IMG/VR virus record: IMGVR_UViG_3300017786_000107
Span: 1-26,760 of that record
Origin: a virus
Length of the DNA: 26,760 bases
Strand: one strand, 5' to 3'
Of the stretch, positions 501 to 17,517 are shown piece by piece. Numbering within the stretch: the first letter of the stretch is position 1; the number at the start of each line of letters is the position of its first letter. The translations under genes were made by a program, and so were the position numbers. The notes under the pieces were generated by a model. That model had not been told where the DNA came from, did not search any database, and was given only the letters and a program-made list of their open reading frames with translations.

Positions 501-1559
501 ATGTTCAGTAATGATGTAAAACGTATAGGGTTTGCTTGCAAGTATTTTCATCCGGATCAGAGTCTCAAAAAGAAACTACTTGAAGAGATTGAGCGTCCAT
601 TAAATGAACGTACTACAACTATTACATGGCTTAATAGGCAAACTCAGGAAGTTGCTGAACAGCGGTTGTGGGATATTATGGTACACAATATTCAGAGCTT
701 TGAACGACTAATTACATATGTAGGAGGATTACCCCATGAATTACGAATGGTTAGACTTGGCAGTAGTATACTCCCTGCCTATACTGAGCCTAGTTGGAGT
801 TATTATTGGCAGTTACCTGATGTACGGCGCTATCTGGAGACTAACCTCGCACCGGTTGGTGATAAAGCTCGTGCTAGGGACGTACGGCTCAGCATGCATC
901 CTGGTCAGTTCACTGTGCTTGCTAGTGACCGCCCAGATGTTGTTAACAGGAGCATAGAAGAATTTGAATATCACACCGATGTCATCAGGTACCTTGGGTA
1001 CGGTAAACAATTCCAGGATTTCAAATGTAACGTCCATATCTCGGGTAAACGCGGTCCACAAGGCATCATTGATGTCCTCGGAAGACTTTCTCCGGAATCA
1101 CGAAACTGCATTACTATTGAGAATGACGAGATGTCGTGGGGTATCGACGCAAGCCTCGAACTCGTCGACCACTGCGCCCTCGTTCTTGATATACACCACC
1201 ACTGGGTTAAAACAGGTGAATACATCTCCCCTATGGACGATAGACTTGCTCGCGTAAAAGATAGTTGGCGTGGTGTGCGTCCTGTTATTCACTACAGCGT
1301 TAGCAGAGAAGATTACCTTGTTGAGCACTGTCAAACAACTAAGCCCAACTATGATGCACTGCTAGAACAAGGCTACAAAAAAGGCAAACTTCGTGCGCAC
1401 AGCGACATGTATTGGAACAGTGCAGTAAATGATTGGGCAGTAAGTTTCAATGAAGACTTTGACATTATGTGTGAAAGCAAAGCAAAACAAGTAGCAAGCA
1501 TTGACTTCTACAATAAAATGTATCAAAAGAAAGTAAACAACAATGTACTCAAAAGTTGA
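501..1559 (+). CDS. uvsE: UV damage endonuclease UvsE/UVDE
   Basis: A 352-residue TIM-barrel DNA repair enzyme expected to nick DNA 5' to UV photoproducts and abasic sites, giving photolyase-independent repair. Family motifs are visible in order: IGFACKYFHP near 9-18, the metal-binding RLSMHPGQFTVLAS at 129-142, NVHISGKRG at 177-185, TIENDE at 205-210, DIHHHW at 230-235, HYS at 264-266, and RAHSDMYW in the C-terminal part. These histidines and acids build the metal cluster in known UvsE enzymes. Length fits the family. The ATG at 501 has no Shine-Dalgarno sequence and coincides with the predicted transcript start, so the mRNA may be leaderless. The gene overlaps the next one by 17 bases. Confidence 0.93.
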   Translation: MFSNDVKRIGFACKYFHPDQSLKKKLLEEIERPLNERTTTITWLNRQTQEVAEQRLWDIMVHNIQSFERLITYVGGLPHELRMVRLGSSILPAYTEPSWSYYWQLPDVRRYLETNLAPVGDKARARDVRLSMHPGQFTVLASDRPDVVNRSIEEFEYHTDVIRYLGYGKQFQDFKCNVHISGKRGPQGIIDVLGRLSPESRNCITIENDEMSWGIDASLELVDHCALVLDIHHHWVKTGEYISPMDDRLARVKDSWRGVRPVIHYSVSREDYLVEHCQTTKPNYDALLEQGYKKGKLRAHSDMYWNSAVNDWAVSFNEDFDIMCESKAKQVASIDFYNKMYQKKVNNNVLKS

Positions 1560-2676
1560 TCAACATATTAAAACACTCTATAACGAGCCTTTAGATCCTC
1601 TATGGGACAACCAAAAAATAACCTACGACACAGCAAAGTATAACTGGAATAAAATCTTTTTAGGTGTTACACAGGAACTAAAGCCTGAAATCAAAAACCT
1701 GCAAGATATTCATTTACATTTTCAACTAGAAGATTTTGTAGATTTACGCAAACACTACGAGCGTTTTACTAATAGCTCGCAGTTTAGTACGATGGTAGAT
1801 GAGTTTATTGTAGACTATGTAGTAGATAAGATTCCTAGTGAAGAATATCTTGTACAACGCACAACAGGCATTCGTTTGCTAATCCCAGATCAAGTCAAGC
1901 AAGGCAGACTGTTAAACTTTCACACAGGGTATTGGACAGGCTATGACAACCATATGTATACCACATGGGTACCTGTCACTGACAGTTGGGATAGCAATGC
2001 AATGCAGGTATTAACCTGGGAACAAACACTTAAAATCACAGATGAGATTTATAACAATAAACTAAGTCTTGAAGAAGTACAAGACATGTGTGAGAAAGTT
2101 TGCTGGCCCGTAAACTGTAAAGTCGGCGAAGCATGGCAGTTCAATCAAGGTGTATGGCACGGAAACATTAACAACGACACAGGTGTAAGTCGTGTAAGTT
2201 TTGATGTGCGTGTTGCTACACCACAAAGCGACTTTGAACACAGACGTCCCGGCAGTTTTTATAGATTTCCTGGAGAGAGCGCAGAAGAAAACTTTGCAAA
2301 ACTTCGCACAGATGGTAAATGGATTGTGTTTACAGATCAAAACAGCGACTTTGTTTATCCTACTCCGCACTATATGATTCGTGAGTTTATGATTTCTTAT
2401 GCAAGAGGCTTGGGAATCAATCCAGTTGAATGGGCAAACGAAGCATGGTGTACAGATTGGATGCCTGCATTTGATTACAAAATCAAACAAGATCTTCAAG
2501 GTATAGTACTACCAAGTATCTTTGCATTCAGCGAAAGCAACGAACGTGTATTAGAAATGCTGTCAGAAGGCATTGAAAACGGTATGCAGTTCTTATTTGT
2601 TGACGAAAACCTTGTAGCAGATACGCAAAAAGATTTGGATCATATCAAAAAACTTTACAACTTTATGAAAAAATAG
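1543..2676 (+). CDS. 2OG-Fe(II) oxygenase-like domain fused to a LIC12192-like 'sporadic carbohydrate cluster' domain
   Basis: A 377-residue protein with two apparent modules. Residues about 50-235 form a phytanoyl/StrK-like double-stranded beta helix: NFHTGYW at 125-131, WVPVTD at 142-147, and distal FNQGVWHG with His206, followed by Arg217 as the likely 2-oxoglutarate anchor. Residues about 255-377 resemble the LIC12192 family (YARGLGINPVEWANEAW, then LQGIVLPSIFAF and a C-terminal helix). In bacteria these two families are neighbours in the 'sporadic carbohydrate cluster', so this may be a fusion of partners. The proximal metal motif reads His127-Thr-Gly129 instead of HxD. The start overlaps uvsE in another frame, suggesting translational coupling. 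The substrate is unknown, probably a glycan or sugar precursor. Confidence 0.7.
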   Translation: MYSKVDQHIKTLYNEPLDPLWDNQKITYDTAKYNWNKIFLGVTQELKPEIKNLQDIHLHFQLEDFVDLRKHYERFTNSSQFSTMVDEFIVDYVVDKIPSEEYLVQRTTGIRLLIPDQVKQGRLLNFHTGYWTGYDNHMYTTWVPVTDSWDSNAMQVLTWEQTLKITDEIYNNKLSLEEVQDMCEKVCWPVNCKVGEAWQFNQGVWHGNINNDTGVSRVSFDVRVATPQSDFEHRRPGSFYRFPGESAEENFAKLRTDGKWIVFTDQNSDFVYPTPHYMIREFMISYARGLGINPVEWANEAWCTDWMPAFDYKIKQDLQGIVLPSIFAFSESNERVLEMLSEGIENGMQFLFVDENLVADTQKDLDHIKKLYNFMKK

Positions 2677-5229: not shown

Positions 5230-6525
5230 TTGGACATCTATTATTTTGTTCCGCACCTTGTGGGTGTTGGTCTTGGCTTGATTAGCGGACTTATTCCAGG
5301 TGTAGGTAACTTTGTCTTAATGCTGTTAGCATGGCCCTTTTTAACTGTGTTTGGCATAGTTGAACTGTTAATCATGTACGCAAGCATGGCGGCAATCAGT
5401 CAATACATTGGCAGTATACCTGCTATTGTATATGGCATACCTGGCGAAAGTTCAAGTTATCCTGCTGTGGCAGAAAGCCGCAACCTCAAAACCATCCCAC
5501 AAGTAAGCAACGCAATCAGCGGCAGTGCTTTTGGCAGTGCAGTTGGTAGTCTTGTTGTAGTTGGATTATGCTATGCTTTTGTAGAGTATACACCTTTAAT
5601 CAAGTACTTTTACAATACATATGTCCTAGTTGGTCTGCTACTAGCAGTCACACTGGCAATGATTGTTACTTGCGGTAACCGTTGGTATGTAAATGCACTG
5701 TACATAGTTAGTGGACTTGGATTAGGGATTATTGGATACAATAGTTATCTAAACATCAATGTAGCAACATTCGGCAACACTTATTTGTACGCTGGTCTTC
5801 CAATGCCAGTTGTGTTGATTTGTTTATTTGCTATTCCGCAGATGTTGCATCATTGGGATGCTGACATAGCCAAGACAAAAGCAAAGGCTTATGAACTAGG
5901 TCGTGTGTACATTCTCAATCCTTTGGCACTATTAGCAAGCACAGCGATAGGTTTCTTCGGAGGGCTTATTCCTGGACTTACTACAGTGTTTAGTAGTACA
6001 GCCGCATACAATGCTAGTATGTTGGTGACCAAAGATCCTGTAAATCGTATTGTGGTTAGTGAAACTGCAAACAATGCAGGTGCTTTCAGTATGTTGTTGC
6101 CACTGCTTATATTTGGAGTACCACTTATTGGCAGTGAAGCAATACTGTTGTTCCTCATGGAACAAAAAGGTTTTAACCTTGTACAGTTTGAGTTCAGCGA
6201 TTTTCTTCCTGAACTTGCCCTTGGACTTGTGTTAGTAAACTTTATTGGATTTATGATTGCTTGGCCCTTGAGCAAAATGGTGCCAGTTTTTTATAACTTT
6301 AACTTAAAAATCTTAATAAGTTTATTGATTATTGCATTGTTTGGTGTTACACTGTATACAGGTTTAATGAACTACAGCATGCTATATTATTTAATATGTT
6401 TCGCTGTACTAGCACCCATAGGAATGCTATTGAGAAACACAGACACACTTCCTTTAGTGTTTGCATTTATCATTCATAACAAACTAATAGATGGAGTATT
6501 TAGACTCAATCAACTTTTATTCTAG
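5230..6525 (+). CDS. TctA-like permease of a tripartite tricarboxylate transporter
   Basis: A 431-residue polytopic inner-membrane protein. The internal repeat typical of TctA is visible: GLISGLIPGVG at 16-26 with IPGESSSYPA at 70-79, and GGLIPGLTTVF at 244-254 with SETANNAGAFSMLLPLLIFG at 277-296 followed by VPLIGSEAIL. TctA permeases form the sodium- or proton-coupled channel that moves di- and tricarboxylates delivered by a periplasmic TctC protein. It is shorter than bacterial TctA (about 500 residues), with compact loops. The start is TTG at 5230, supported by ACGGAGT seven bases upstream. The next gene is a matching binding protein nine bases downstream; no TctB-like small subunit is present. 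Confidence 0.88.
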   Translation: MDIYYFVPHLVGVGLGLISGLIPGVGNFVLMLLAWPFLTVFGIVELLIMYASMAAISQYIGSIPAIVYGIPGESSSYPAVAESRNLKTIPQVSNAISGSAFGSAVGSLVVVGLCYAFVEYTPLIKYFYNTYVLVGLLLAVTLAMIVTCGNRWYVNALYIVSGLGLGIIGYNSYLNINVATFGNTYLYAGLPMPVVLICLFAIPQMLHHWDADIAKTKAKAYELGRVYILNPLALLASTAIGFFGGLIPGLTTVFSSTAAYNASMLVTKDPVNRIVVSETANNAGAFSMLLPLLIFGVPLIGSEAILLFLMEQKGFNLVQFEFSDFLPELALGLVLVNFIGFMIAWPLSKMVPVFYNFNLKILISLLIIALFGVTLYTGLMNYSMLYYLICFAVLAPIGMLLRNTDTLPLVFAFIIHNKLIDGVFRLNQLLF

Positions 6526-6534
6526 GAGATATAG

Positions 6535-7386
6535 ATGAAGAACCTACTAGTTGCATTTTCGATTGCACTATTTACGACTACTGCTTTTGCGGCAGAAAAA
6601 CTAACTATCCTTAACAGTGGTAGTAAAACAGGCGGCTTTAGCATGCAAAGCCAAGCATACAGTACTGACCTAGCCAGCAGTTATGACGTAAACTTGGTAA
6701 ACCCAGGTGACCGTTGTGTTGCACTAGGAAGTTTGCTTCCAAAGATTGATGGTCCTGTGCTTATGCCATGGGCTAGTGATTATGAAGCAGTAGGGCGTGA
6801 CGGCGGCTGTGTTAAGTTTGACATCAACGATGCAATCACACTGCGCTATGATTCAGCACCTTTGTTTGTGTGTACCAGGGGTGGCTTTATTAGCAAAGAC
6901 TCAGGTCGTGTAGCACACACAGTACCTGCAGACGGTCCATTGGCTCGTATTGTACAAGAGTTCAACAACCAATGGGGAACTACACACAAGCCTGTTGTCT
7001 ATGATGGATCAGGCGATGCACGTCTTGCTCTTATCAACGGCGAAGTAGACTATGCACTGCTTAGTAAAAAGCATGTATTGGTTGTTACTGAAACTGATCC
7101 TGCTATTACTTGCGAGCAAAGCCTTGCTAGTGTTGGCGAAAACAGTTTGCCACAAATGACAGGTAATCCTAAACTAGCATTTGGTTGGGATATGACTTGG
7201 ATGGCACTTAATATGACACAGGAACAAGCAGATGGGTTGAAGTTGCGTATGATGGAAAACCATTTGAACTGTGACAGTGCTATTGGTACATGGACAAAGT
7301 GTAACAGCGTATACACAACTCGTTGGGATCTCACCGAAGACGAAATCAACAGTCGTTGGGAACCAATGGTAGAAAGCCAGCGATGA
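6535..7386 (+). CDS. TctC/Bug-like periplasmic substrate-binding protein
   Basis: 283 residues with a Sec signal peptide (MKNLLVAFSIALFTTTAFA, cleavage likely before AEK at about residue 20). The mature part begins LTILNSGSKTGGFSMQSQ, as in type II periplasmic binding proteins, and contains VYDGSGDARLALINGEVDYA at about 162-181, close to the 'y.gsg.a..al..GeVD.a' pattern of TctC/Bug proteins. It would capture an organic anion in the host periplasm and hand it to the TctA-like permease encoded directly upstream. It is shorter than typical TctC (about 320). AGGAGATATAG precedes the ATG. Four or more cysteines in the mature protein suggest disulphides. The ligand cannot be read from the sequence. 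Confidence 0.78.
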   Translation: MKNLLVAFSIALFTTTAFAAEKLTILNSGSKTGGFSMQSQAYSTDLASSYDVNLVNPGDRCVALGSLLPKIDGPVLMPWASDYEAVGRDGGCVKFDINDAITLRYDSAPLFVCTRGGFISKDSGRVAHTVPADGPLARIVQEFNNQWGTTHKPVVYDGSGDARLALINGEVDYALLSKKHVLVVTETDPAITCEQSLASVGENSLPQMTGNPKLAFGWDMTWMALNMTQEQADGLKLRMMENHLNCDSAIGTWTKCNSVYTTRWDLTEDEINSRWEPMVESQR

Positions 7387-8105
7387 AACTAGATCCATAT
7401 GATTTTAAGATCCCACTGAAACCTATCAGTACTGAGGAAAGTGTTCTTCCGGTAATCCGAGAACAGTATCCTTGGCATTGGGATCCTATGAAACAGGATC
7501 ACGGCGATGCTCTCAACTATGAGGGCAACGTCGAGTTTGATTGGGAAGGTCTAGCAGAGTTTGCAATCAATAAAGCAAACCAGCATATGACACCAGAAAA
7601 GTTTTGGTGGTATGACTACGAGAATGAACGTATCATGCATGCCAATGATGATGTAAGCGATGCTCCTATTAGGGAACAAGCATTGCTTGCACTAAAAAAT
7701 AATACCCATACTGCGTACAACACACAGTACTTCAAGATTGCTAACGAGGAGTTTGAACATTGGTTTGAACCACTAGCAAACTTATTCCCAGGATTTGGCA
7801 AAGATAAAATGGGCATTAGTCTGTTTATTCAGCCTCCAGGGCATAATATTTGGAGTCATGTGGATACCTATAGTAGTTTTATTAGACGCACAGGTGACGA
7901 AAAGCCTGACTATACTAAACTGCGCAGGTATATGATTTTTGTGCGTGACTGGGATTGGGGTCACTTCTTTCATTGGGGCAACACTTGTATTAACCAATGG
8001 CGAGCAGGAGACTTTTGGGATCTTCAGCCTGGCGTGTATCACGGAAGTGCAAACGCAGGCATCAATCCTAAGATCACTATTCATTGGAGTGGTGAACTTG
8101 AATAA
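7383..8105 (+). CDS. 2OG-Fe(II) oxygenase-like protein (A)
   Basis: 240 residues from ATG 7383, which overlaps the previous stop as ATGA and implies translational coupling. The proximal metal motif is SHVD (in IWSHVDTYSSF), followed by RYMIFVRDWDWGHFFHWG, then the distal His in GVYHGSANAGINPKITIHWSG. The order HxD...H with a following basic residue fits non-haem iron, 2-oxoglutarate-dependent oxygenases, which couple decarboxylation of 2-oxoglutarate to hydroxylation of a substrate. It is a clear paralogue of the protein at 8613-9254, sharing 'DWGHF' and 'SAN.GINPK'. The substrate is unknown. Confidence 0.85.
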   Translation: MKLDPYDFKIPLKPISTEESVLPVIREQYPWHWDPMKQDHGDALNYEGNVEFDWEGLAEFAINKANQHMTPEKFWWYDYENERIMHANDDVSDAPIREQALLALKNNTHTAYNTQYFKIANEEFEHWFEPLANLFPGFGKDKMGISLFIQPPGHNIWSHVDTYSSFIRRTGDEKPDYTKLRRYMIFVRDWDWGHFFHWGNTCINQWRAGDFWDLQPGVYHGSANAGINPKITIHWSGELE

Positions 8106-8613
8106 TGTGTTGCTTATAGGTGCTACAGGACATTTAGGACAGTATCTTGCTGACTCCTATAAGCCAACCATTGCCACTACACGATTTGAAGATCCTATTG
8201 ATGAGTGGCAACAATATGAAAACATAGACACAGTTTGGCTTGTTGCGAGAGCGTGTCGCAAAACAAGTCCAAGACGAGATGCAGAAACAAGACGCATTGA
8301 ACTAGAAGGCATACAACGTATATGTGATGTTTTTAGTGATTGCCACGTTGTGTATACAAGTACAAAATGTGTGTATGGACTTACAGACAATGACATAAGG
8401 CATACTCATAGAGAGCATGTTGGTCGTGTATTTTGCAGTGGATTTCTTGGTACTAGAAATTTACCTGATATTAACAATCAAAAACACACAATAGACCTAT
8501 CACCTTTGGGAGAAGAGCATCGTATATATGCTGAAACTAAACTTGCAGGGGAAGATATTGTAAGACGCACAGTGCGTAGTCATTCGATTTATAGAATATG
8601 GGATATAAAGTAA
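8098..8613 (+). CDS. short NAD(P)-dependent SDR/epimerase-like protein
   Basis: About 171 residues. An N-terminal Rossmann strand and glycine motif (VLLIGATGHLGQYL) starts at once, and an extended-SDR active site follows: VVYTSTKCVYG with the conserved Ser/Thr region and IYAETKLAGE with the YxxxK pair. Bacterial extended SDRs (nucleotide-sugar epimerases and reductases) have about 300 residues; this one stops soon after the catalytic helix and lacks most of the substrate-binding half. No ATG exists near the Rossmann strand; TTG 8098 is preferred because GGAG at 8086-8089 lies eight bases upstream, but GTG 8092 or GTG 8107 are possible. It overlaps both neighbouring genes. Confidence 0.7.
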   Translation: MNNVLLIGATGHLGQYLADSYKPTIATTRFEDPIDEWQQYENIDTVWLVARACRKTSPRRDAETRRIELEGIQRICDVFSDCHVVYTSTKCVYGLTDNDIRHTHREHVGRVFCSGFLGTRNLPDINNQKHTIDLSPLGEEHRIYAETKLAGEDIVRRTVRSHSIYRIWDIK

Positions 8614-9254
8614 TGCCAAATCTTTACGAAAAAAATGATTGGTTCCAAGAATACTTGGACGACAAACAAGTAAGTTTAGATGATCATCTAGACATTAGTG
8701 ATTTAGAAATGCATGTTGATATTGATCATCAACAGATTATATCGTGGGCACAAGATAATATTTCCCGAGCTACGATTAAAGATTACAAACCTAGACCGTT
8801 TGTACCTGCAGACAGTTTGCGACAAAGCGTAATGACACAGTATCTAGGATACAACGAACATAACACTTTAGAAATCAACTGGGGAATCGAACCAGAAGAT
8901 GATCAGGCACTGAAAGACATGTGCGGTGATGATTTCTTTGATGCTGTTAATCTCAAAAAAGAAACCTGTTTGGTTAGATTGTTACGATATGATCCAGGCA
9001 CAGGCATTCCTATTCACACTGATAGTTACAACGGTTTTAAAACACGTTTCGGCGAAGGCAATGTAAAAAGATATTTTGTTGCTATTAGCCCATGGGATTG
9101 GGGACATTTTTTGCAAGTGCATGATAATATGTTACATCATTGGAAACCTGGATACACTGTGGAGATTCCAAATGATGTATTTCATCTAAGTGCAAACTTT
9201 GGCATCAATCCAAAGTATACATTAACGGTAACCGGATTTGTGAATGAGGACTAG
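8613..9254 (+). CDS. 2OG-Fe(II) oxygenase-like protein (B)
   Basis: 213 residues. ATG 8613 overlaps the previous stop as TAATG and is preferred over ATG 8598. Metal ligands are visible as IPIHTDSYNGF (HxD) and VFHLSANFGINPKYTLTVTG (distal His). The stretch PWDWGHFLQVHDNMLHHWKPG matches the corresponding part of protein A, so the two oxygenases arose from one ancestor and flank the SDR gene. The N-terminal 60 residues are acidic and have no counterpart that I recognise. It is expected to act in the cytosol on an unknown small molecule or protein side chain. Confidence 0.85.
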   Translation: MPNLYEKNDWFQEYLDDKQVSLDDHLDISDLEMHVDIDHQQIISWAQDNISRATIKDYKPRPFVPADSLRQSVMTQYLGYNEHNTLEINWGIEPEDDQALKDMCGDDFFDAVNLKKETCLVRLLRYDPGTGIPIHTDSYNGFKTRFGEGNVKRYFVAISPWDWGHFLQVHDNMLHHWKPGYTVEIPNDVFHLSANFGINPKYTLTVTGFVNED

Positions 9255-10128
9255 AAAGCCTTATAGTCAAGGTAAATGTATTCCTGATAGTGAAACAACT
9301 ACAACACTAGGCATGTTAATGCATGCTAAAGTAGGCACACAGGACACGGATTGCAGTGAGGAATACTGCTATATGTATCGAGGTTGGATTCTCAGTACAA
9401 GCAACAACACCATACAAGGTTTGAACGAGTTCAGCGATAGTGTATACAGTCATGGTACAACAGAAGCATTTGACAAGTTTTACTTAAAACATCGTCATAG
9501 AAATCTGCGTGTACTAGCAGGTGAATACAGTTATCACGGGTATGCTACTGATATTAATGTACTAAAAGATAAAAATGATATTGGGCCAAATGACACTTTG
9601 ATCATTAGCATACCTTTCGCTGACAGTGGTACAAACTATAACTACAAAGAACTAATGGAACAATGTACACTATTAAAAGTACCTGTACTTGTGGATTGTT
9701 GTTGGTTTGGCACGGTAGGTGAAATGGACTTCGACCTAACTTATCCGTGCATTGAACAGGTTGTGTTTAGCATGAGCAAAGCATTTCCTGTTGGAAGATT
9801 GCGTATAGGTATGCGTCTACAGAGATCTGGGTCAAATAAAGATGGACTGGGCGCATACCAACGTGATAGTTATCTAAACTTTTTTAACATGCAAATAGCA
9901 ATGGGCTTAATGGAAAACTTTAGTTCAGACTATTTGTTTGAAAAGTATAGAACTACACAACTTGCACTGTGCGATGAACTTGGTGTAAGTGCTAGCCCTG
10001 TGGTAAATCTTGCTACAGGTGTTGGTGAACATTGGGACTACCTTAACAGAGGAGGTCCTTTCAATAGACTTTGTTTAAGTGATCAACTTAAACAGAGTAT
10101 AAATACAGTGTTAGAACAGCGCCTATGA
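9244..10128 (+). CDS. PLP-dependent aminotransferase-fold protein
   Basis: 294 residues, starting at ATG 9244 inside the end of the previous gene. Class I/II aminotransferase landmarks are visible: LIISIPFADSGTNYNYKEL at about 119-137, VLVDCCWFG with Asp151 (expected to contact the PLP ring nitrogen), and FSMSKAFPVGRLRIGMR with Lys179 as the Schiff-base lysine and a nearby arginine for phosphate. It is about 100 residues shorter than typical fold-type I enzymes, with reduced N- and C-terminal small domains. The reaction could be transamination of a keto-sugar or keto-acid, which would fit the SDR and oxygenase neighbours; this is inference. Confidence 0.72.
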   Translation: MRTRKPYSQGKCIPDSETTTTLGMLMHAKVGTQDTDCSEEYCYMYRGWILSTSNNTIQGLNEFSDSVYSHGTTEAFDKFYLKHRHRNLRVLAGEYSYHGYATDINVLKDKNDIGPNDTLIISIPFADSGTNYNYKELMEQCTLLKVPVLVDCCWFGTVGEMDFDLTYPCIEQVVFSMSKAFPVGRLRIGMRLQRSGSNKDGLGAYQRDSYLNFFNMQIAMGLMENFSSDYLFEKYRTTQLALCDELGVSASPVVNLATGVGEHWDYLNRGGPFNRLCLSDQLKQSINTVLEQRL

Positions 10129-10190
10129 CGCGGATCGACGGGTCCTAATATAAAGTTCAACAATACTGATATCCTATAGGAGATAATAAA

Positions 10191-10904
10191 ATGTCAGAAC
10201 TTAAACAGTATGATGCAAAAGGTTACAACCCTAATACAGGCATCTATTGCAGTTCACAGATTTTCCAGGGCGACTGGGACAATGAACTAGCAGCACTCGA
10301 TTACACTGCTCGCGAACGTGCAGTGAGTGATAACAATATCGTTGCATTCGACGAAGATAAAGGTATTGTTAGCAACTATCTTTACAATGCTTTCCGTAGT
10401 GAAGATGGTAAAAGCACAACAACAGAAATCCAAGACTTTTGGGCAGAAGAAGCACCAGAAAACTTCTCATACACAGACAGTTACTACAACAGTCCAAAAC
10501 TAAGAGCTATGATTGATTGGTTTAAGTGTGAGAAGACACGCATCCGTATCTTCCAGCAGAAGCCAGGTCATACAATGGCTATCCACACTGACTTTGATAA
10601 TCAGCGTGGTCAAGAGCACGGCGAAACACTGCGCATTTTCGTACAACTTAACGACATGCCAGGCGGTGCTTGGTTCCGCTTTAAGACCGAAGACAGTGAA
10701 ATGTCAATCAACCTACAAAAAGGTCAGTTCCTAATCTTTAATCCAGATCACACAGGTCATGGTACAGAGAACGTAACAGACATCCCACGCAACACATTCA
10801 TGATGGTTGTGAAGCGTAACGAATGGTTAGACAACTTAGTTGGTGAAAGCAACATGCAGCTCATCAACGTAGACGAGCTAGTAGCAGCAAAAGCTGCAGC
10901 TTAA
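10191..10904 (+). CDS. 2OG-Fe(II) oxygenase-like protein (C), aspartyl/asparaginyl hydroxylase type
   Basis: 237 residues with AGGAGATAAT immediately upstream of the ATG. Residues about 117-200 carry the metal site: IRIFQQKPGHTMAIHTDFDN (HxD), LRIFVQLND, the Gly-rich PGGAWFRF turn, then GQFLIFNPDHTGHGTENV with the distal His and PRNTFMMVV with the 2-oxoglutarate-binding Arg. This arrangement is nearer to aspartyl/asparaginyl beta-hydroxylase-like enzymes than to proteins A and B. It is the last gene before a strong terminator and is separated by 62 bases from the aminotransferase-like gene. The target is unknown; it could be a protein. Confidence 0.82.
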   Translation: MSELKQYDAKGYNPNTGIYCSSQIFQGDWDNELAALDYTARERAVSDNNIVAFDEDKGIVSNYLYNAFRSEDGKSTTTEIQDFWAEEAPENFSYTDSYYNSPKLRAMIDWFKCEKTRIRIFQQKPGHTMAIHTDFDNQRGQEHGETLRIFVQLNDMPGGAWFRFKTEDSEMSINLQKGQFLIFNPDHTGHGTENVTDIPRNTFMMVVKRNEWLDNLVGESNMQLINVDELVAAKAAA

Positions 10905-12265: not shown

Positions 12266-12715
12266 ATGATAGTATCAGTTACAGGAACAGATGCAGGGCT
12301 TGGAAAAAGCATTGCTGATTATTTAGAACACGCACACACTGTTTTAAGATTTGGAAAACAGCATGATCTCAGAGATTATTCTGTTAGACAAACGATCTTA
12401 ACCGCAGACTTTGATGTTCTAATCAGCGTAGCAAAGCCAGATTTTGCACAAACACAACTCGTGTATGAATGCTTCGAAATACATGGAACAAAAAAACGTG
12501 TTATAAACATAGGCAGTGCAGTGGTATATGAAAAACATTGGGGCGACGATGTTCATATGATGCGCTATCATACACAGAAACAGAGTCTTGCACATGCAGT
12601 TGCACAGATAAATCATCCGAACATTGCAATCGTTAATCCAGCGCATTTGTATGATCCTGGAGAATATGACTATGCTAAACTGGAACAATGGTGCAGGAAT
12701 AATATTGTTATATGA
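12266..12715 (+). CDS. mini short-chain dehydrogenase/reductase
   Basis: 149 residues starting at ATG 12266, just after tRNA-Arg; the longer reading upstream would run through the tRNA and is rejected. The coenzyme motif is VTGTDAGLGKSIADYL (TGxxxGLG) at about 5-20, a conserved Ser lies in VINIGSAVVY, and the catalytic pair is YHTQK (YxxxK). The chain ends soon after, so it is much smaller than the usual 250-residue classical SDR, though it keeps the complete cofactor and catalytic set. It overlaps the radical SAM gene by ATGA. The substrate is unknown; association with the next gene suggests a joint pathway. Confidence 0.72.
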   Translation: MIVSVTGTDAGLGKSIADYLEHAHTVLRFGKQHDLRDYSVRQTILTADFDVLISVAKPDFAQTQLVYECFEIHGTKKRVINIGSAVVYEKHWGDDVHMMRYHTQKQSLAHAVAQINHPNIAIVNPAHLYDPGEYDYAKLEQWCRNNIVI

Positions 12716-14001
12716 AACCAAAACAGTTATTTGAAAGCAAAACATTTTGCCCTGCGCCTTGGAACAATCTTTATGTAGCACCAGATGGTGATGTTAAAAC
12801 TTGTAGTATCGGAGCAAGCCCTTTAGGTAATCTTAACACAGATACGTTTGCTAGTTGTATCACGAGCAATCCTGTGCTTAAAGAAATACAGGGTGCTATG
12901 ATAAATGGCAAATACCATAGTAACTGCGCAGAGTGTTATAAACTTGAAACAGAGCAAGATGCTTATAGTTTAAGAAAACACTATAAACGCACACTTACAA
13001 GAACTGACAGATTAGAAAGTTATGATACAAACGATGGTGACCTAATACCTACCGGATTTGATTTACGTTATGATAACACCTGTCAAAATGCATGTGTTTA
13101 TTGTTTTCCAGCCCTAAGCAGTAGATGGGCAAAAGAACTAGGAGTGACGGTCAACAGGGCAGATGGTGTAGAGGATGTTAAGCAGTTTGTACTGGATAAC
13201 CTAGCGAATGCAAAAGAAGTTTATCTTGCAGGCGGTGAGCCACTTATAAACAAGGATTTTGCTCAGTTACTGGAAACACTATACGAGGTCAATCCTGATT
13301 GTAAGTTAAGAATAAACAGTAATATAAAAAACATACATACACCTGTATTTGAACTTAGCAAAAAGTTTAAAAAGTTAAGATATACAATAAGTGCAGAAAG
13401 CACAGGTGAACATTATCAATACATTAGATATCCACAGACCTGGAGTAGTTTTGCAAAAAATATTGACATAGTTATAAATGAAGTTCCTAGTTATAACTTT
13501 AACATGGTTTTGAATGTATTAAATCCTGTAGCACTATTCGATTGTATAGATTACCTTATGGAACGAGGCGTACATGAGAATGGTTTTGTAATACATCATG
13601 CAACAAGTCCAACTTGGAGTAATATTAATAATCTGCCAGACTGGCAGCTAGACTATTTTGTACTCAGATGTACACAACTACAAAAGACATTGGATCCTAA
13701 ATACAGTTTGTATAATGCCATAGAAGGTTGCATTAACTTCATTGACAGTAAATACAAAAAAGATATTGACGATACTCGAACTAATCTGCTATTATTAGAT
13801 CAAAGAAGAAAACTTAATAGTAAAGAACTTTTCCCTCATATATGGGAGTCGAACATGGAAAAAGAAGAAACTATCATGCCTGTTGATATGTTCAACAACA
13901 AGCAACAAAAGAAAGAAGCCGAAGATCAAGACGCAGAGCTCGACTGGGCCGAAACTTATGGTGTAAACACTGAGGATTTTTTATCGCCAAAAAAGACTTG
14001 A
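12712..14001 (+). CDS. twitch/SPASM-type radical SAM protein
   Basis: 429 residues. The N-terminal twitch-like domain has Cys13 (FCPAPWNNLYV), Cys31 (VKTCSIG), and Cys72 and Cys75 (NCAECYKLE), enough to bind an auxiliary Fe-S cluster. The radical SAM core follows, with CQNACVYC at 124-131 (CxxxCxxC, binding the SAM-cleaving [4Fe-4S] cluster) and AGGEP at 173-177. The order auxiliary domain first, radical SAM domain second is a form that I associate with marine phage genomes, often annotated only as 'twitch domain radical SAM protein'. The last 60 residues are charged and probably flexible. The substrate is unknown; peptide or glycan modification is typical of the wider family. Confidence 0.88.
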   Translation: MKPKQLFESKTFCPAPWNNLYVAPDGDVKTCSIGASPLGNLNTDTFASCITSNPVLKEIQGAMINGKYHSNCAECYKLETEQDAYSLRKHYKRTLTRTDRLESYDTNDGDLIPTGFDLRYDNTCQNACVYCFPALSSRWAKELGVTVNRADGVEDVKQFVLDNLANAKEVYLAGGEPLINKDFAQLLETLYEVNPDCKLRINSNIKNIHTPVFELSKKFKKLRYTISAESTGEHYQYIRYPQTWSSFAKNIDIVINEVPSYNFNMVLNVLNPVALFDCIDYLMERGVHENGFVIHHATSPTWSNINNLPDWQLDYFVLRCTQLQKTLDPKYSLYNAIEGCINFIDSKYKKDIDDTRTNLLLLDQRRKLNSKELFPHIWESNMEKEETIMPVDMFNNKQQKKEAEDQDAELDWAETYGVNTEDFLSPKKT

Positions 14002-16079: not shown

Positions 16080-16361
16080 ATGATCACACTAACTGAAAAA
16101 GCAGAACAATATCTTAAAACCGTTGGAGATCCCAATGTTTACCTAAGTGTAAAAGGCGGAGGATGCAGCGGTTTTACTTATATTTGGGATGTTACAGACA
16201 AAGAACCTACCGTAGGCAATCTACATGTAGACCCTATTGCAGAAATGTTTGTAATGGGCTGTACCGTTGATTATATTACAGAACTAGGCGGCAGTTATCT
16301 ACAAGTCGTCAATCCCAATGCTGTAGCAAGTTGCGGCTGCGGCGAAAGTTTTGCTGTATAA
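16080..16361 (+). CDS. A-type iron-sulphur carrier (IscA/HesB-like)
   Basis: 93 residues, starting four bases after the previous stop. The three conserved cysteines of A-type carriers are visible: GGGCSGF at about 25-31, and the C-terminal ASCGCGESF, giving the CxnCxC pattern. These proteins hold and deliver [2Fe-2S] or [4Fe-4S] clusters to apo-enzymes. The central part (TVDYITELGGSYLQVVNPNA) also matches the family fold. HesB/IscA genes occur in several marine phages. Candidate clients in this window are the radical SAM protein; the next gene, a Rieske-oxygenase homologue, no longer has cluster ligands. Confidence 0.92.
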   Translation: MITLTEKAEQYLKTVGDPNVYLSVKGGGCSGFTYIWDVTDKEPTVGNLHVDPIAEMFVMGCTVDYITELGGSYLQVVNPNAVASCGCGESFAV

Positions 16362-16425: not shown

Positions 16426-16446
16426 TTGTATAGTAAGGAGTTTACT

Positions 16447-17517
16447 ATGCCACCACGCAATCATACCAACTGGTTAAAGCAACCAAACATAGAATACATC
16501 AGCAGTGAATGCTACAATAATCACGAAGTTTACCTAGCAGAACAAGAGTTGATCTTCGGTAAAGTTTGGGTGCCTATATGCCACTTGAGCGAAATGTATG
16601 AACTAGGCGATTTCCGCACAACTACAATAGCAGGCGTTCCTGTAATAGCAGTAAATACAACGGACGGTGTTCGTGCTCTTCGAGACACAGGCATTACACA
16701 GCCAGCAGGTACACTAAGTGGGCCTATAGATGGAACACAACTGCATTGCGAAGTAAAGCACGGACAAATGGTTTGGGTAACACTGGATCCAAATCCTACT
16801 CAGGATGTAGAACAGTGGACAGCAGGTGCATTTGATTGCATAGCAGATGCTATTGATACTGAAGAACTAGAAGTGTTTCACTATCACAAAGCAATCATTG
16901 ACACCAACTACAAGTTGTGGCATGATACTAATAGCGAGTTTTATCACGATTTCATGCACTACTTTAACAGAGTGAGCGGTTTTAACGATGAATATTTCGC
17001 TAGAAAAAATGTTCCTTTTGATAATGGTCATGTTAACGTCAGCAGCTTTACTGTTAACTATACTGAGTATGACGGCTTTGAGGATAGAGGGGAGTTATCT
17101 TTTCCCAATCTGCCGCCCAACCAGTGGTACATGGTCGACCTCTTCCCAGGCTATAACTTCAACTTACGGGGCAGTGCCTATCGTAGTGACACAGTAACTC
17201 CACTAGGTCCTAATCGAGTCTTAATCGAGTTCAGAGGTTATGGGCTGCGCATTGACACACCTGCTGAGAGACACACACGCATTAAACACCACAACAGTAT
17301 CTGGGGTCCATTTGGACGCAATCTGCACGAAGACCTTATTGGCGTTGCAGGGCAAGGCACTACAATGCGTGAAGGTACAGAATCAAGAAACATTCTGCAC
17401 GGAAGACATGAGAACTCTACTATACATGATGAAGTTGGTATGCGACACTACTATGGCAAATGGGGCGATTTCTTAGGTGTAAATCCAACAAGACCACTAG
17501 AGAACTTAACTTTGTAA
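16447..17517 (+). CDS. ring-hydroxylating oxygenase alpha-subunit homologue lacking Rieske cluster ligands
   Basis: 356 residues from ATG 16447, with AAGGAG at 16435-16440; a TTG start 21 bases upstream is rejected. The N-terminus keeps the Rieske-oxygenase frame (LIFGKVWVPICHLSEMYELG, then DFRTTTIAGVPVIAV), but the segment that should hold CxH and CxxH is short and reads VRALRDTGITQPAG with neither motif. The catalytic domain is better preserved: NYKLWHDTNSEFYHDFMHYF at 154-173 (His167, His171) and LHEDLIGVAGQG with Asp296, forming the mononuclear iron site. Such enzymes normally receive electrons through the Rieske cluster; this one would need another source, or has a different role. It is about 80 residues shorter than usual. 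An Fe-S carrier gene lies just upstream. Confidence 0.75.
   Translation: MPPRNHTNWLKQPNIEYISSECYNNHEVYLAEQELIFGKVWVPICHLSEMYELGDFRTTTIAGVPVIAVNTTDGVRALRDTGITQPAGTLSGPIDGTQLHCEVKHGQMVWVTLDPNPTQDVEQWTAGAFDCIADAIDTEELEVFHYHKAIIDTNYKLWHDTNSEFYHDFMHYFNRVSGFNDEYFARKNVPFDNGHVNVSSFTVNYTEYDGFEDRGELSFPNLPPNQWYMVDLFPGYNFNLRGSAYRSDTVTPLGPNRVLIEFRGYGLRIDTPAERHTRIKHHNSIWGPFGRNLHEDLIGVAGQGTTMREGTESRNILHGRHENSTIHDEVGMRHYYGKWGDFLGVNPTRPLENLTL

What the first reader, a model, noticed from the sequence alone, without database searches (positions are those of the whole stretch)
1543..2676. 2OG oxygenase with HxG in place of HxD: possible halogenase-like or inactive metal site
The proximal metal motif reads His127-Thr-Gly129, with distal His206 and Arg217 kept. 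The three other oxygenases in the window all retain HxD (SHVD, IHTD, IHTD). In Fe(II)/2OG halogenases the HxD acid is replaced by Ala or Gly, which frees a site for halide. A phage halogenase acting on a sugar or amino-acid substrate would be remarkable in a chloride- and bromide-rich sea; loss of activity is the alternative.
Basis: partly seen in the sequence, partly recalled or inferred. Interest (0 to 1): 0.62.

Follow-up and report, generated by a model that had tools for sequence, protein, structure and literature searches.

The report
Phage two-histidine iron oxygenase subfamily
This virus gene belongs to a widespread phage branch of iron-using oxygenases that all replaced one of the three usual iron-holding amino acids with glycine, so it is neither a fluke nor visible decay, and whether it chlorinates or simply oxidises its (probably sugar-type) target can now be tested.

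Summary
Observation confirmed. ORF 1543-2676 (377 aa) reads H127-T-G129 with H206 and R217; the three other oxygenases keep HxD. HxG is fixed, not private: a motif scan blind to residue 129 found 42 viral ORFs with HxG, 41 of them fused like this one to a TIGR04323/LIC12192 domain, and 55 viral HxD relatives, none fused. Six cellular HxG loci exist, several in surface-glycan clusters. Canonical cellular TIGR04324 keeps HxD and is mostly followed by a separate LIC12192 gene. A tree without column 129 needs one HxD/HxG change (97/96 support). Asp135 is not conserved; the only invariant acid, D221, co-varies with R111 and also occurs in HxD relatives, so it is probably not a replacement ligand. 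The glycine codon GGG is two changes from any Asp codon. AlphaFold gives a confident PhyH-type fold; Foldseek's best match is the CurA halogenase, but VIA-align's best are hydroxylases such as PtlH. HxG alone does not prove halogenation: human AspH is a two-His hydroxylase. Verdict: a real, selected two-His Fe/2OG subfamily, probably acting on a sugar-type substrate; halogenation plausible (about 0.3) but unproven; loss of function unlikely.

The parts
1543..2676 (+). Fused protein: HxG Fe(II)/2OG oxygenase plus LIC12192-like domain (377 aa)
   Evidence: ORF and translation; TIGR04324 and TIGR04323 matches; AlphaFold2 model pLDDT 95.5
1648..2265 (+). Oxygenase domain, residues 36-241 (TIGR04324 match; PhyH-type fold)
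1921..1929 (+). H127-T128-G129, proximal metal motif with Gly in place of Asp
   Evidence: translation and codons CAC ACA GGG; HxG throughout the clade
1873..1875 (+). R111, co-varies with D221 (R/D in HxG and StrG-like HxD, S/N in canonical TIGR04324)
2146..2148 (+). Q202, four before the distal His; Gln in 60 of 60 HxG rows, variable in HxD groups
2158..2160 (+). H206, distal metal ligand
   Evidence: invariant
2191..2193 (+). R217, presumed 2OG-binding Arg
   Evidence: invariant
2203..2205 (+). D221, the only strictly invariant acid of the oxygenase domain in the HxG clade; probably not a ligand
2308..2673 (+). C-terminal domain (residues 256-377), LIC12192-like, serine-recombinase-type fold
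   Evidence: TIGR04323 match; homologous to stand-alone LIC12192 ORFs next to cellular TIGR04324; model pLDDT 95.9 and Foldseek

Best explanation
The gene encodes a working Fe(II)/2-oxoglutarate enzyme of a distinct two-histidine (HxG) subfamily related to the TIGR04324 oxygenases, fused to their usual partner protein LIC12192. Shown: conserved HxG, H206 and R217, a single origin, fusion or adjacency with LIC12192, and a confident PhyH-type model. Inferred: Fe(II) is held by H127 and H206 only; 2OG is held by R217; the site left empty by Asp is filled by an exogenous ligand (water or halide) that Q202 may hold in place; an oxo-iron species then attacks a C-H bond of a small sugar-type substrate (nucleotide sugar, aminocyclitol or glycan unit), with the LIC12192 domain helping to bind or process it. 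I lean to oxygenation, with water as the extra ligand as in AspH, and keep halogenation as the main rival.
For: HxG, H206 and R217 invariant over dozens of ORFs down to about 26-30% identity; one origin on a tree built without column 129, 97/96 support; 41 of 42 viral HxG ORFs from the unbiased scan carry the LIC12192 domain, 0 of 55 viral HxD ORFs do; most cellular TIGR04324 genes are followed by a LIC12192 gene; coherent remodelling of nearby conserved positions (113 Q/H to V/L, 138 E to C/T/M/L, 140 to T, 202 fixed as Q); PhyH-type fold with hydroxylases as top VIA-align matches; glycan-cluster context in bacteria and sugar-type genes in phages; AspH shows that a two-His site hydroxylates without halogenating (PMC13168262).
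Against: No biochemistry, no metal or ligand in the model, substrate unknown. Most characterised PhyH-type enzymes with HxG/HxA that I know of are halogenases, and the best Foldseek match is the CurA halogenase. AspH holds its water with an Asp; the same spacing here gives a Gln.
Confidence: 0.5

Rival explanations
1. It is a Fe(II)/2OG halogenase: chloride or bromide occupies the vacated carboxylate site and is transferred to a C-H carbon of a sugar, nucleotide or aminocyclitol-type substrate.
For: HxG is the defining halogenase substitution (PMC12346261; PMC11186838). Best Foldseek PDB match is the CurA halogenase domain, E 7e-9, with SyrB2 and CytC3 lower. Loss of nearby polar and acidic residues (D129, E138, Q/H113) and a neutral Q202 would suit an anion. 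Sugar-ring chlorination has a precedent in the nucleotide halogenases AdaV/CtNTH.
Against: AspH has the same two-His arrangement and does not halogenate. VIA-align's top 50 contains no halogenase and is led by PtlH; T140, which lines up with a Thr of CytC3, also lines up with a Thr of the hydroxylase PtlH. No halogenated product is known for such clusters.
Confidence: 0.3
2. The third iron ligand comes from the substrate itself (for example a vicinal diol or carboxylate of the sugar), giving epimerisation, ring closure or desaturation rather than hydroxylation or halogenation.
For: Sugar-type context; structural neighbours include the 2OG epimerase SnoN and carbocyclase SnoK.
Against: No direct evidence; fold neighbours of every reaction type score alike.
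Confidence: 0.1
3. The oxygenase domain has lost catalysis and serves as a binding or scaffold domain for the LIC12192 part.
For: Loss of the carboxylate ligand is a common route to inactive relatives.
Against: H127, H206 and R217 are invariant over deep divergence and in several bacterial phyla; a decayed site would be expected to drift.
Confidence: 0.07
4. Another acid (D135, D221 or one from the C-terminal domain) supplies the carboxylate ligand.
For: D221 is invariant in the HxG clade and is Asn in canonical HxD TIGR04324, which looks like a swap.
Against: D135 is mostly Gly or Asn. D221 is equally invariant in 61 HxD relatives that keep their own Asp, and it tracks R111; PtlH also has HxD plus the R-x-S-x-D-x-R pattern. 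E300 and E355 are equally conserved in the LIC12192 partners of HxD enzymes.
Confidence: 0.03

Closest known systems
TIGR04324 sporadic carbohydrate cluster 2OG-Fe(II) oxygenase, with partner TIGR04323 (LIC12192)
   Same: Same domain and same inserted stretch between the proximal and distal His; same partner protein; H127, H206, G207, N208, N211, R217 and R223 shared
   Different: Canonical members keep HxD with S111/N221 and have LIC12192 as a separate gene; this protein scores below the curated cut-offs, has HxG with R111/D221, and is fused
StrG-like 2OG oxygenases (Azospirillum StrG annotation; about 220 aa phage forms)
   Same: R111, D221 and HGN..N..G.TR.S.D.R motif
   Different: HxD kept, no insertion, no LIC12192 domain
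PtlH, 1-deoxypentalenic acid 11-beta hydroxylase (PhyH family)
   Same: Best solved-structure match by profile and by VIA-align; similar FHQxG...RTxW...RxSxDxR arrangement
   Different: HxD present; terpenoid substrate; under 15% identity
Fe/2OG halogenases (CurA Hal, SyrB2, CytC3, AdaV)
   Same: Acid of the facial triad replaced by Gly or Ala; same fold class; CurA is the top Foldseek match
   Different: No sequence kinship beyond the fold; no halide evidence; no carrier-protein or natural-product cluster seen
Human AspH (aspartate/asparagine beta-hydroxylase)
   Same: Two-His Fe site with the acid missing; a conserved residue four before the distal His (D721 there, Q202 here)
   Different: Protein substrate; second-sphere Asp rather than Gln; no sequence kinship found in the PDB searches

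Membership tests
TIGR04324 (SpoChoClust_2) oxygenase | Score above the curated cut-off (150 bits) | tested here: not met
   84.9 bits; other HxG phage proteins 62.6-91 bits
TIGR04324 (SpoChoClust_2) oxygenase | Pairing with LIC12192 (TIGR04323) | tested here: met
   Fused C-terminal domain, though at 21.9 bits (cut-off 55) here; stand-alone partners next to most cellular members
TIGR04324 (SpoChoClust_2) oxygenase | HxD facial triad of the cellular members | tested here: not met
   HxG
Fe(II)/2OG halogenase | HxD acid replaced by Gly or Ala, both His and the 2OG Arg kept | tested here: met
Fe(II)/2OG halogenase | Halide bound at iron and halogenated product | not testable with these tools
   No coordinates, ligand modelling or assay available
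Fe(II)/2OG halogenase | Sequence or fold kinship closer to halogenases than to hydroxylases | tested here: inconclusive
   Foldseek top match CurA; VIA-align top matches hydroxylases; profile search PtlH first, CytC3 at E about 1
AspH-type two-His hydroxylase | HxG with no replacement carboxylate | tested here: met
   By sequence only: D135 not conserved; D221 shared with HxD relatives
AspH-type two-His hydroxylase | Second-sphere acid holding the extra iron-bound water | tested here: not met
   The residue four before the distal His is Gln in 60 of 60 rows, not Asp (AspH D721); compared by sequence spacing only

The most novel reading that the evidence does not exclude
A phage-borne Fe(II)/2OG halogenase family, fused to a recombinase-fold partner domain, that chlorinates or brominates a sugar, nucleotide sugar or aminocyclitol during infection.
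Probability: 0.28. Interest if true: 0.88.

Novelty: new variant of a known kind. Interest (0 to 1): 0.6.

Why it matters
Natural two-His Fe/2OG enzymes are few and chemically instructive, because they bear on what separates halogenation from hydroxylation. This is a large, single-origin natural set with HxD relatives that use the same partner protein, so the question of what else must change with Asp-to-Gly can be asked by direct comparison. If it halogenates, it would be, to my knowledge, the first phage Fe/2OG halogenase and a source of halogenated sugar-type compounds. If it hydroxylates, it is a microbial parallel to AspH. Either way it gives a handle on the uncharacterised sporadic carbohydrate cluster pair.

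Tried and rejected
Direct tblastn of the protein against phage records and pattern searches with its own peptides found nothing; its near relatives are in IMG/VR. A weak Providencia/Morganella phage hit has no HxG or HxD oxygenase motif in the matched ORF and was dropped. L007 and L010 matched the DNA pattern by chance. Apparent HxG in L102, L032 and L159 were spurious upstream matches; their true motif is HxD. Asp135 and D221 as replacement ligands were rejected as argued. Sequencing error or frameshift is rejected by GGG and dozens of relatives. No paper in the library mentions 'sporadic carbohydrate cluster', and none holds StrG together with streptomycin biosynthesis. Phylum-wide genome searches added no cellular HxG genes beyond those already found, so cellular HxG is rare in those samples. 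I had no atomic coordinates, so no metal, 2OG or chloride docking was done.

Full report
Observation. The ORF at 1543-2676 encodes 377 residues with H127-T-G129, H206 and R217. The glycine codon is GGG, two changes from any Asp codon. The window is a 26,760-base IMG/VR virus record. The N-terminal part matches TIGR04324 (84.9 bits, cut-off 150) and the C-terminal part matches TIGR04323/LIC12192 (21.9 bits, cut-off 55). The three other oxygenases keep SHVD, IHTD and IHTD.

Relatives in viruses. The first relatives were found with patterns that contained HxG, so they cannot count as independent support. Among the ORFs from that scan that cover the site, 42 viral ORFs have HxG and 55 have HxD; 41 of the 42 HxG ORFs carry the LIC12192 domain and none of the 55 HxD ORFs does (the one HxG exception, L092, runs to the end of its stored stretch). 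Representative HxG members under 75% identity number 21. In a 20-row alignment H127, G129, H206, R217, S219, D221 and R223 are invariant. The middle residue is T, Q or N; residue 135 is mostly G, with some D and N.

Relatives in cells. One scan of bacterial genomes with a distal-motif pattern showed that canonical cellular members keep HxD, typically LLPVHSDVWSGDSPFEVVVW; with the later phylum searches the count is 127 cellular HxD ORFs. The scan also gave six HxG loci: L167 (Roseivirga), L172 and L174 (proteobacterial MAGs), L204 and L252 (Caldithrix and KSB1) and L214 (Bacteriovoracaceae). In L167, L172 and L174 the LIC12192 domain is fused; in L252, L204 and L214 it is a separate, adjacent or overlapping ORF. 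Most cellular HxD oxygenases are likewise followed by a LIC12192 ORF. So oxygenase and LIC12192 form one functional unit, and the phage protein is the fused form with a changed metal site. Searches of 395, 398, 291 and 82 genomes in four phyla found no cellular HxG genes beyond those already in hand.

History. A tree of 92 oxygenase domains with column 129 removed needs a single change between HxD and HxG; the HxG set has 97/96 support. The root is not inferred, but the HxD state of the StrG-like relatives and of PtlH makes Asp-to-Gly the likely direction.

Is another acid the ligand? D135 is not conserved. The only acid invariant in the oxygenase domain of the HxG clade is D221. It looked at first like a swap, because canonical cellular TIGR04324 has N221. 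But 61 HxD relatives also have D221, and the residue tracks R111: R111/D221 in 58 of 59 HxG rows with both letters and in 61 of 61 HxD rows with D221, and S111/N221 in 112 of 121 canonical rows. The simplest reading is an R111-D221 salt bridge that predates the loss of D129. PtlH, which keeps HxD, also carries the R-x-S-x-D-x-R pattern. In the C-domain, E300 and E355 are equally conserved in the partners of HxD enzymes. I therefore reject a replacement carboxylate on sequence grounds; a structure would settle it.

Other coupled changes. Compared with both HxD groups, the HxG clade turned position 113 from Q/H to V/L, position 138 from E to C/T/M/L and position 140 from V/N to T, and fixed Q at 202, which varies in the HxD groups. 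Q202 is four residues before the distal His. In AspH, D721 lies four before H725 and holds the water at the vacated carboxylate site; the authors argue that this water hinders halide binding (PMC13168262). A neutral Gln at that spacing could hold water or donate a hydrogen bond to a halide. This comparison is by sequence spacing only.

Fold. AlphaFold2 with a 76-row alignment gave mean pLDDT 95.5 and pTM 0.91. Foldseek's best PDB match is the CurA halogenase domain (E 7e-9), with SyrB2 and CytC3 further down among hydroxylases. VIA-align's second look ranks PtlH first (Z 13.7, rmsd 3.5, 208 aligned) and lists no halogenase among its top 50. Profile searches of PDB sequences find PtlH (E 0.005-0.02) and CytC3 only at E about 1. 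Fold evidence therefore does not choose between halogenase and hydroxylase. The C-domain alone (pLDDT 95.9) matches serine-recombinase catalytic domains (TP901-1 integrase, E 8e-5, TM 0.66).

Context. Cellular HxG genes L252 and L167 lie near family-2 glycosyltransferases, GDP-mannose 4,6-dehydratase and NAD epimerases. HxG phage loci repeatedly carry a GalE-type epimerase (9 loci), another 2OG-type oxygenase with HxD (8), radical SAM proteins (6), an amidinotransferase (6) and a DegT aminotransferase (4). The amidinotransferase tested hits streptomycin StrB1 (1bwd) at E 1.7e-88. In the window itself an epimerase-like ORF (7936-8613), an ORF similar to the aminotransferase-like neighbour (9244-10128, by eye) and the HxD oxygenases form a block at 7323-10904. 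This points to an amino-sugar, aminocyclitol or glycan substrate; that is inference.

Mechanism. Shown: conserved two-His plus Arg site, single origin, partner fusion, fold. Inferred: Fe(II) on H127 and H206, 2OG on R217, exogenous water or halide in the vacated site near Q202, and C-H attack on a sugar-type substrate. Halogenases are characterised by the Asp to Gly/Ala change that lets halide bind (PMC12346261, PMC11186838), and AdaV-type enzymes chlorinate the deoxyribose of nucleotides, so halogenation is possible. AspH shows that it is not implied. I give an active non-halogenating two-His enzyme about 0.5, halogenase about 0.3, substrate-ligated chemistry 0.1, a dead enzyme 0.07 and a replacement carboxylate 0.03.

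Verdict. Real and conserved; a new variant of a known kind; interpretation partly supported.

Noticed in passing
window 2308-2673; L252:5790-6203; most of L146-L264: The LIC12192 (TIGR04323) domain has the fold of a serine-recombinase catalytic domain (TP901-1 integrase, Foldseek E 8e-5, TM 0.66), although it accompanies an oxygenase. A Ser-Arg pair common in the partners of HxD enzymes (aligned to 266-267) is not kept in the HxG fusions.
   Followed up: partly
L111:4199-5287 and neighbours in L033, L068, L080, L107, L123: Phage loci with the HxG gene carry an amidinotransferase; the L111 copy matches streptomycin StrB1 (1bwd) at E 1.7e-88. Four HxG loci have DegT/StrS-type aminotransferases. 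This hints at a phage aminocyclitol or guanidino-sugar pathway.
   Followed up: partly
L011 2299-3420 and 5543-6697: One marine phage contig has two diverged tandem copies of the HxG fusion gene, one HTG and one HNG.
   Followed up: no
window 16426-17517 and 16080-16361: Rieske-type ring-hydroxylating oxygenase alpha subunit-like protein (PF00848, E 2e-6) next to an IscA-like iron-sulphur protein (PF01521).
   Followed up: no
window 5230-6525 and 6535-7386: TctA-type tricarboxylate transporter membrane protein (PF01970, E 2e-44) followed by an ORF with a signal-peptide-like start in a phage contig.
   Followed up: no
window 501-1559: UvdE UV-damage endonuclease (PF03851, E 7e-37) overlaps the start of the HxG gene by 17 bases on the same strand.
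   Followed up: no
window 12712-14001: Twitch-domain radical SAM protein (NF033640, above its cut-off).
   Followed up: no
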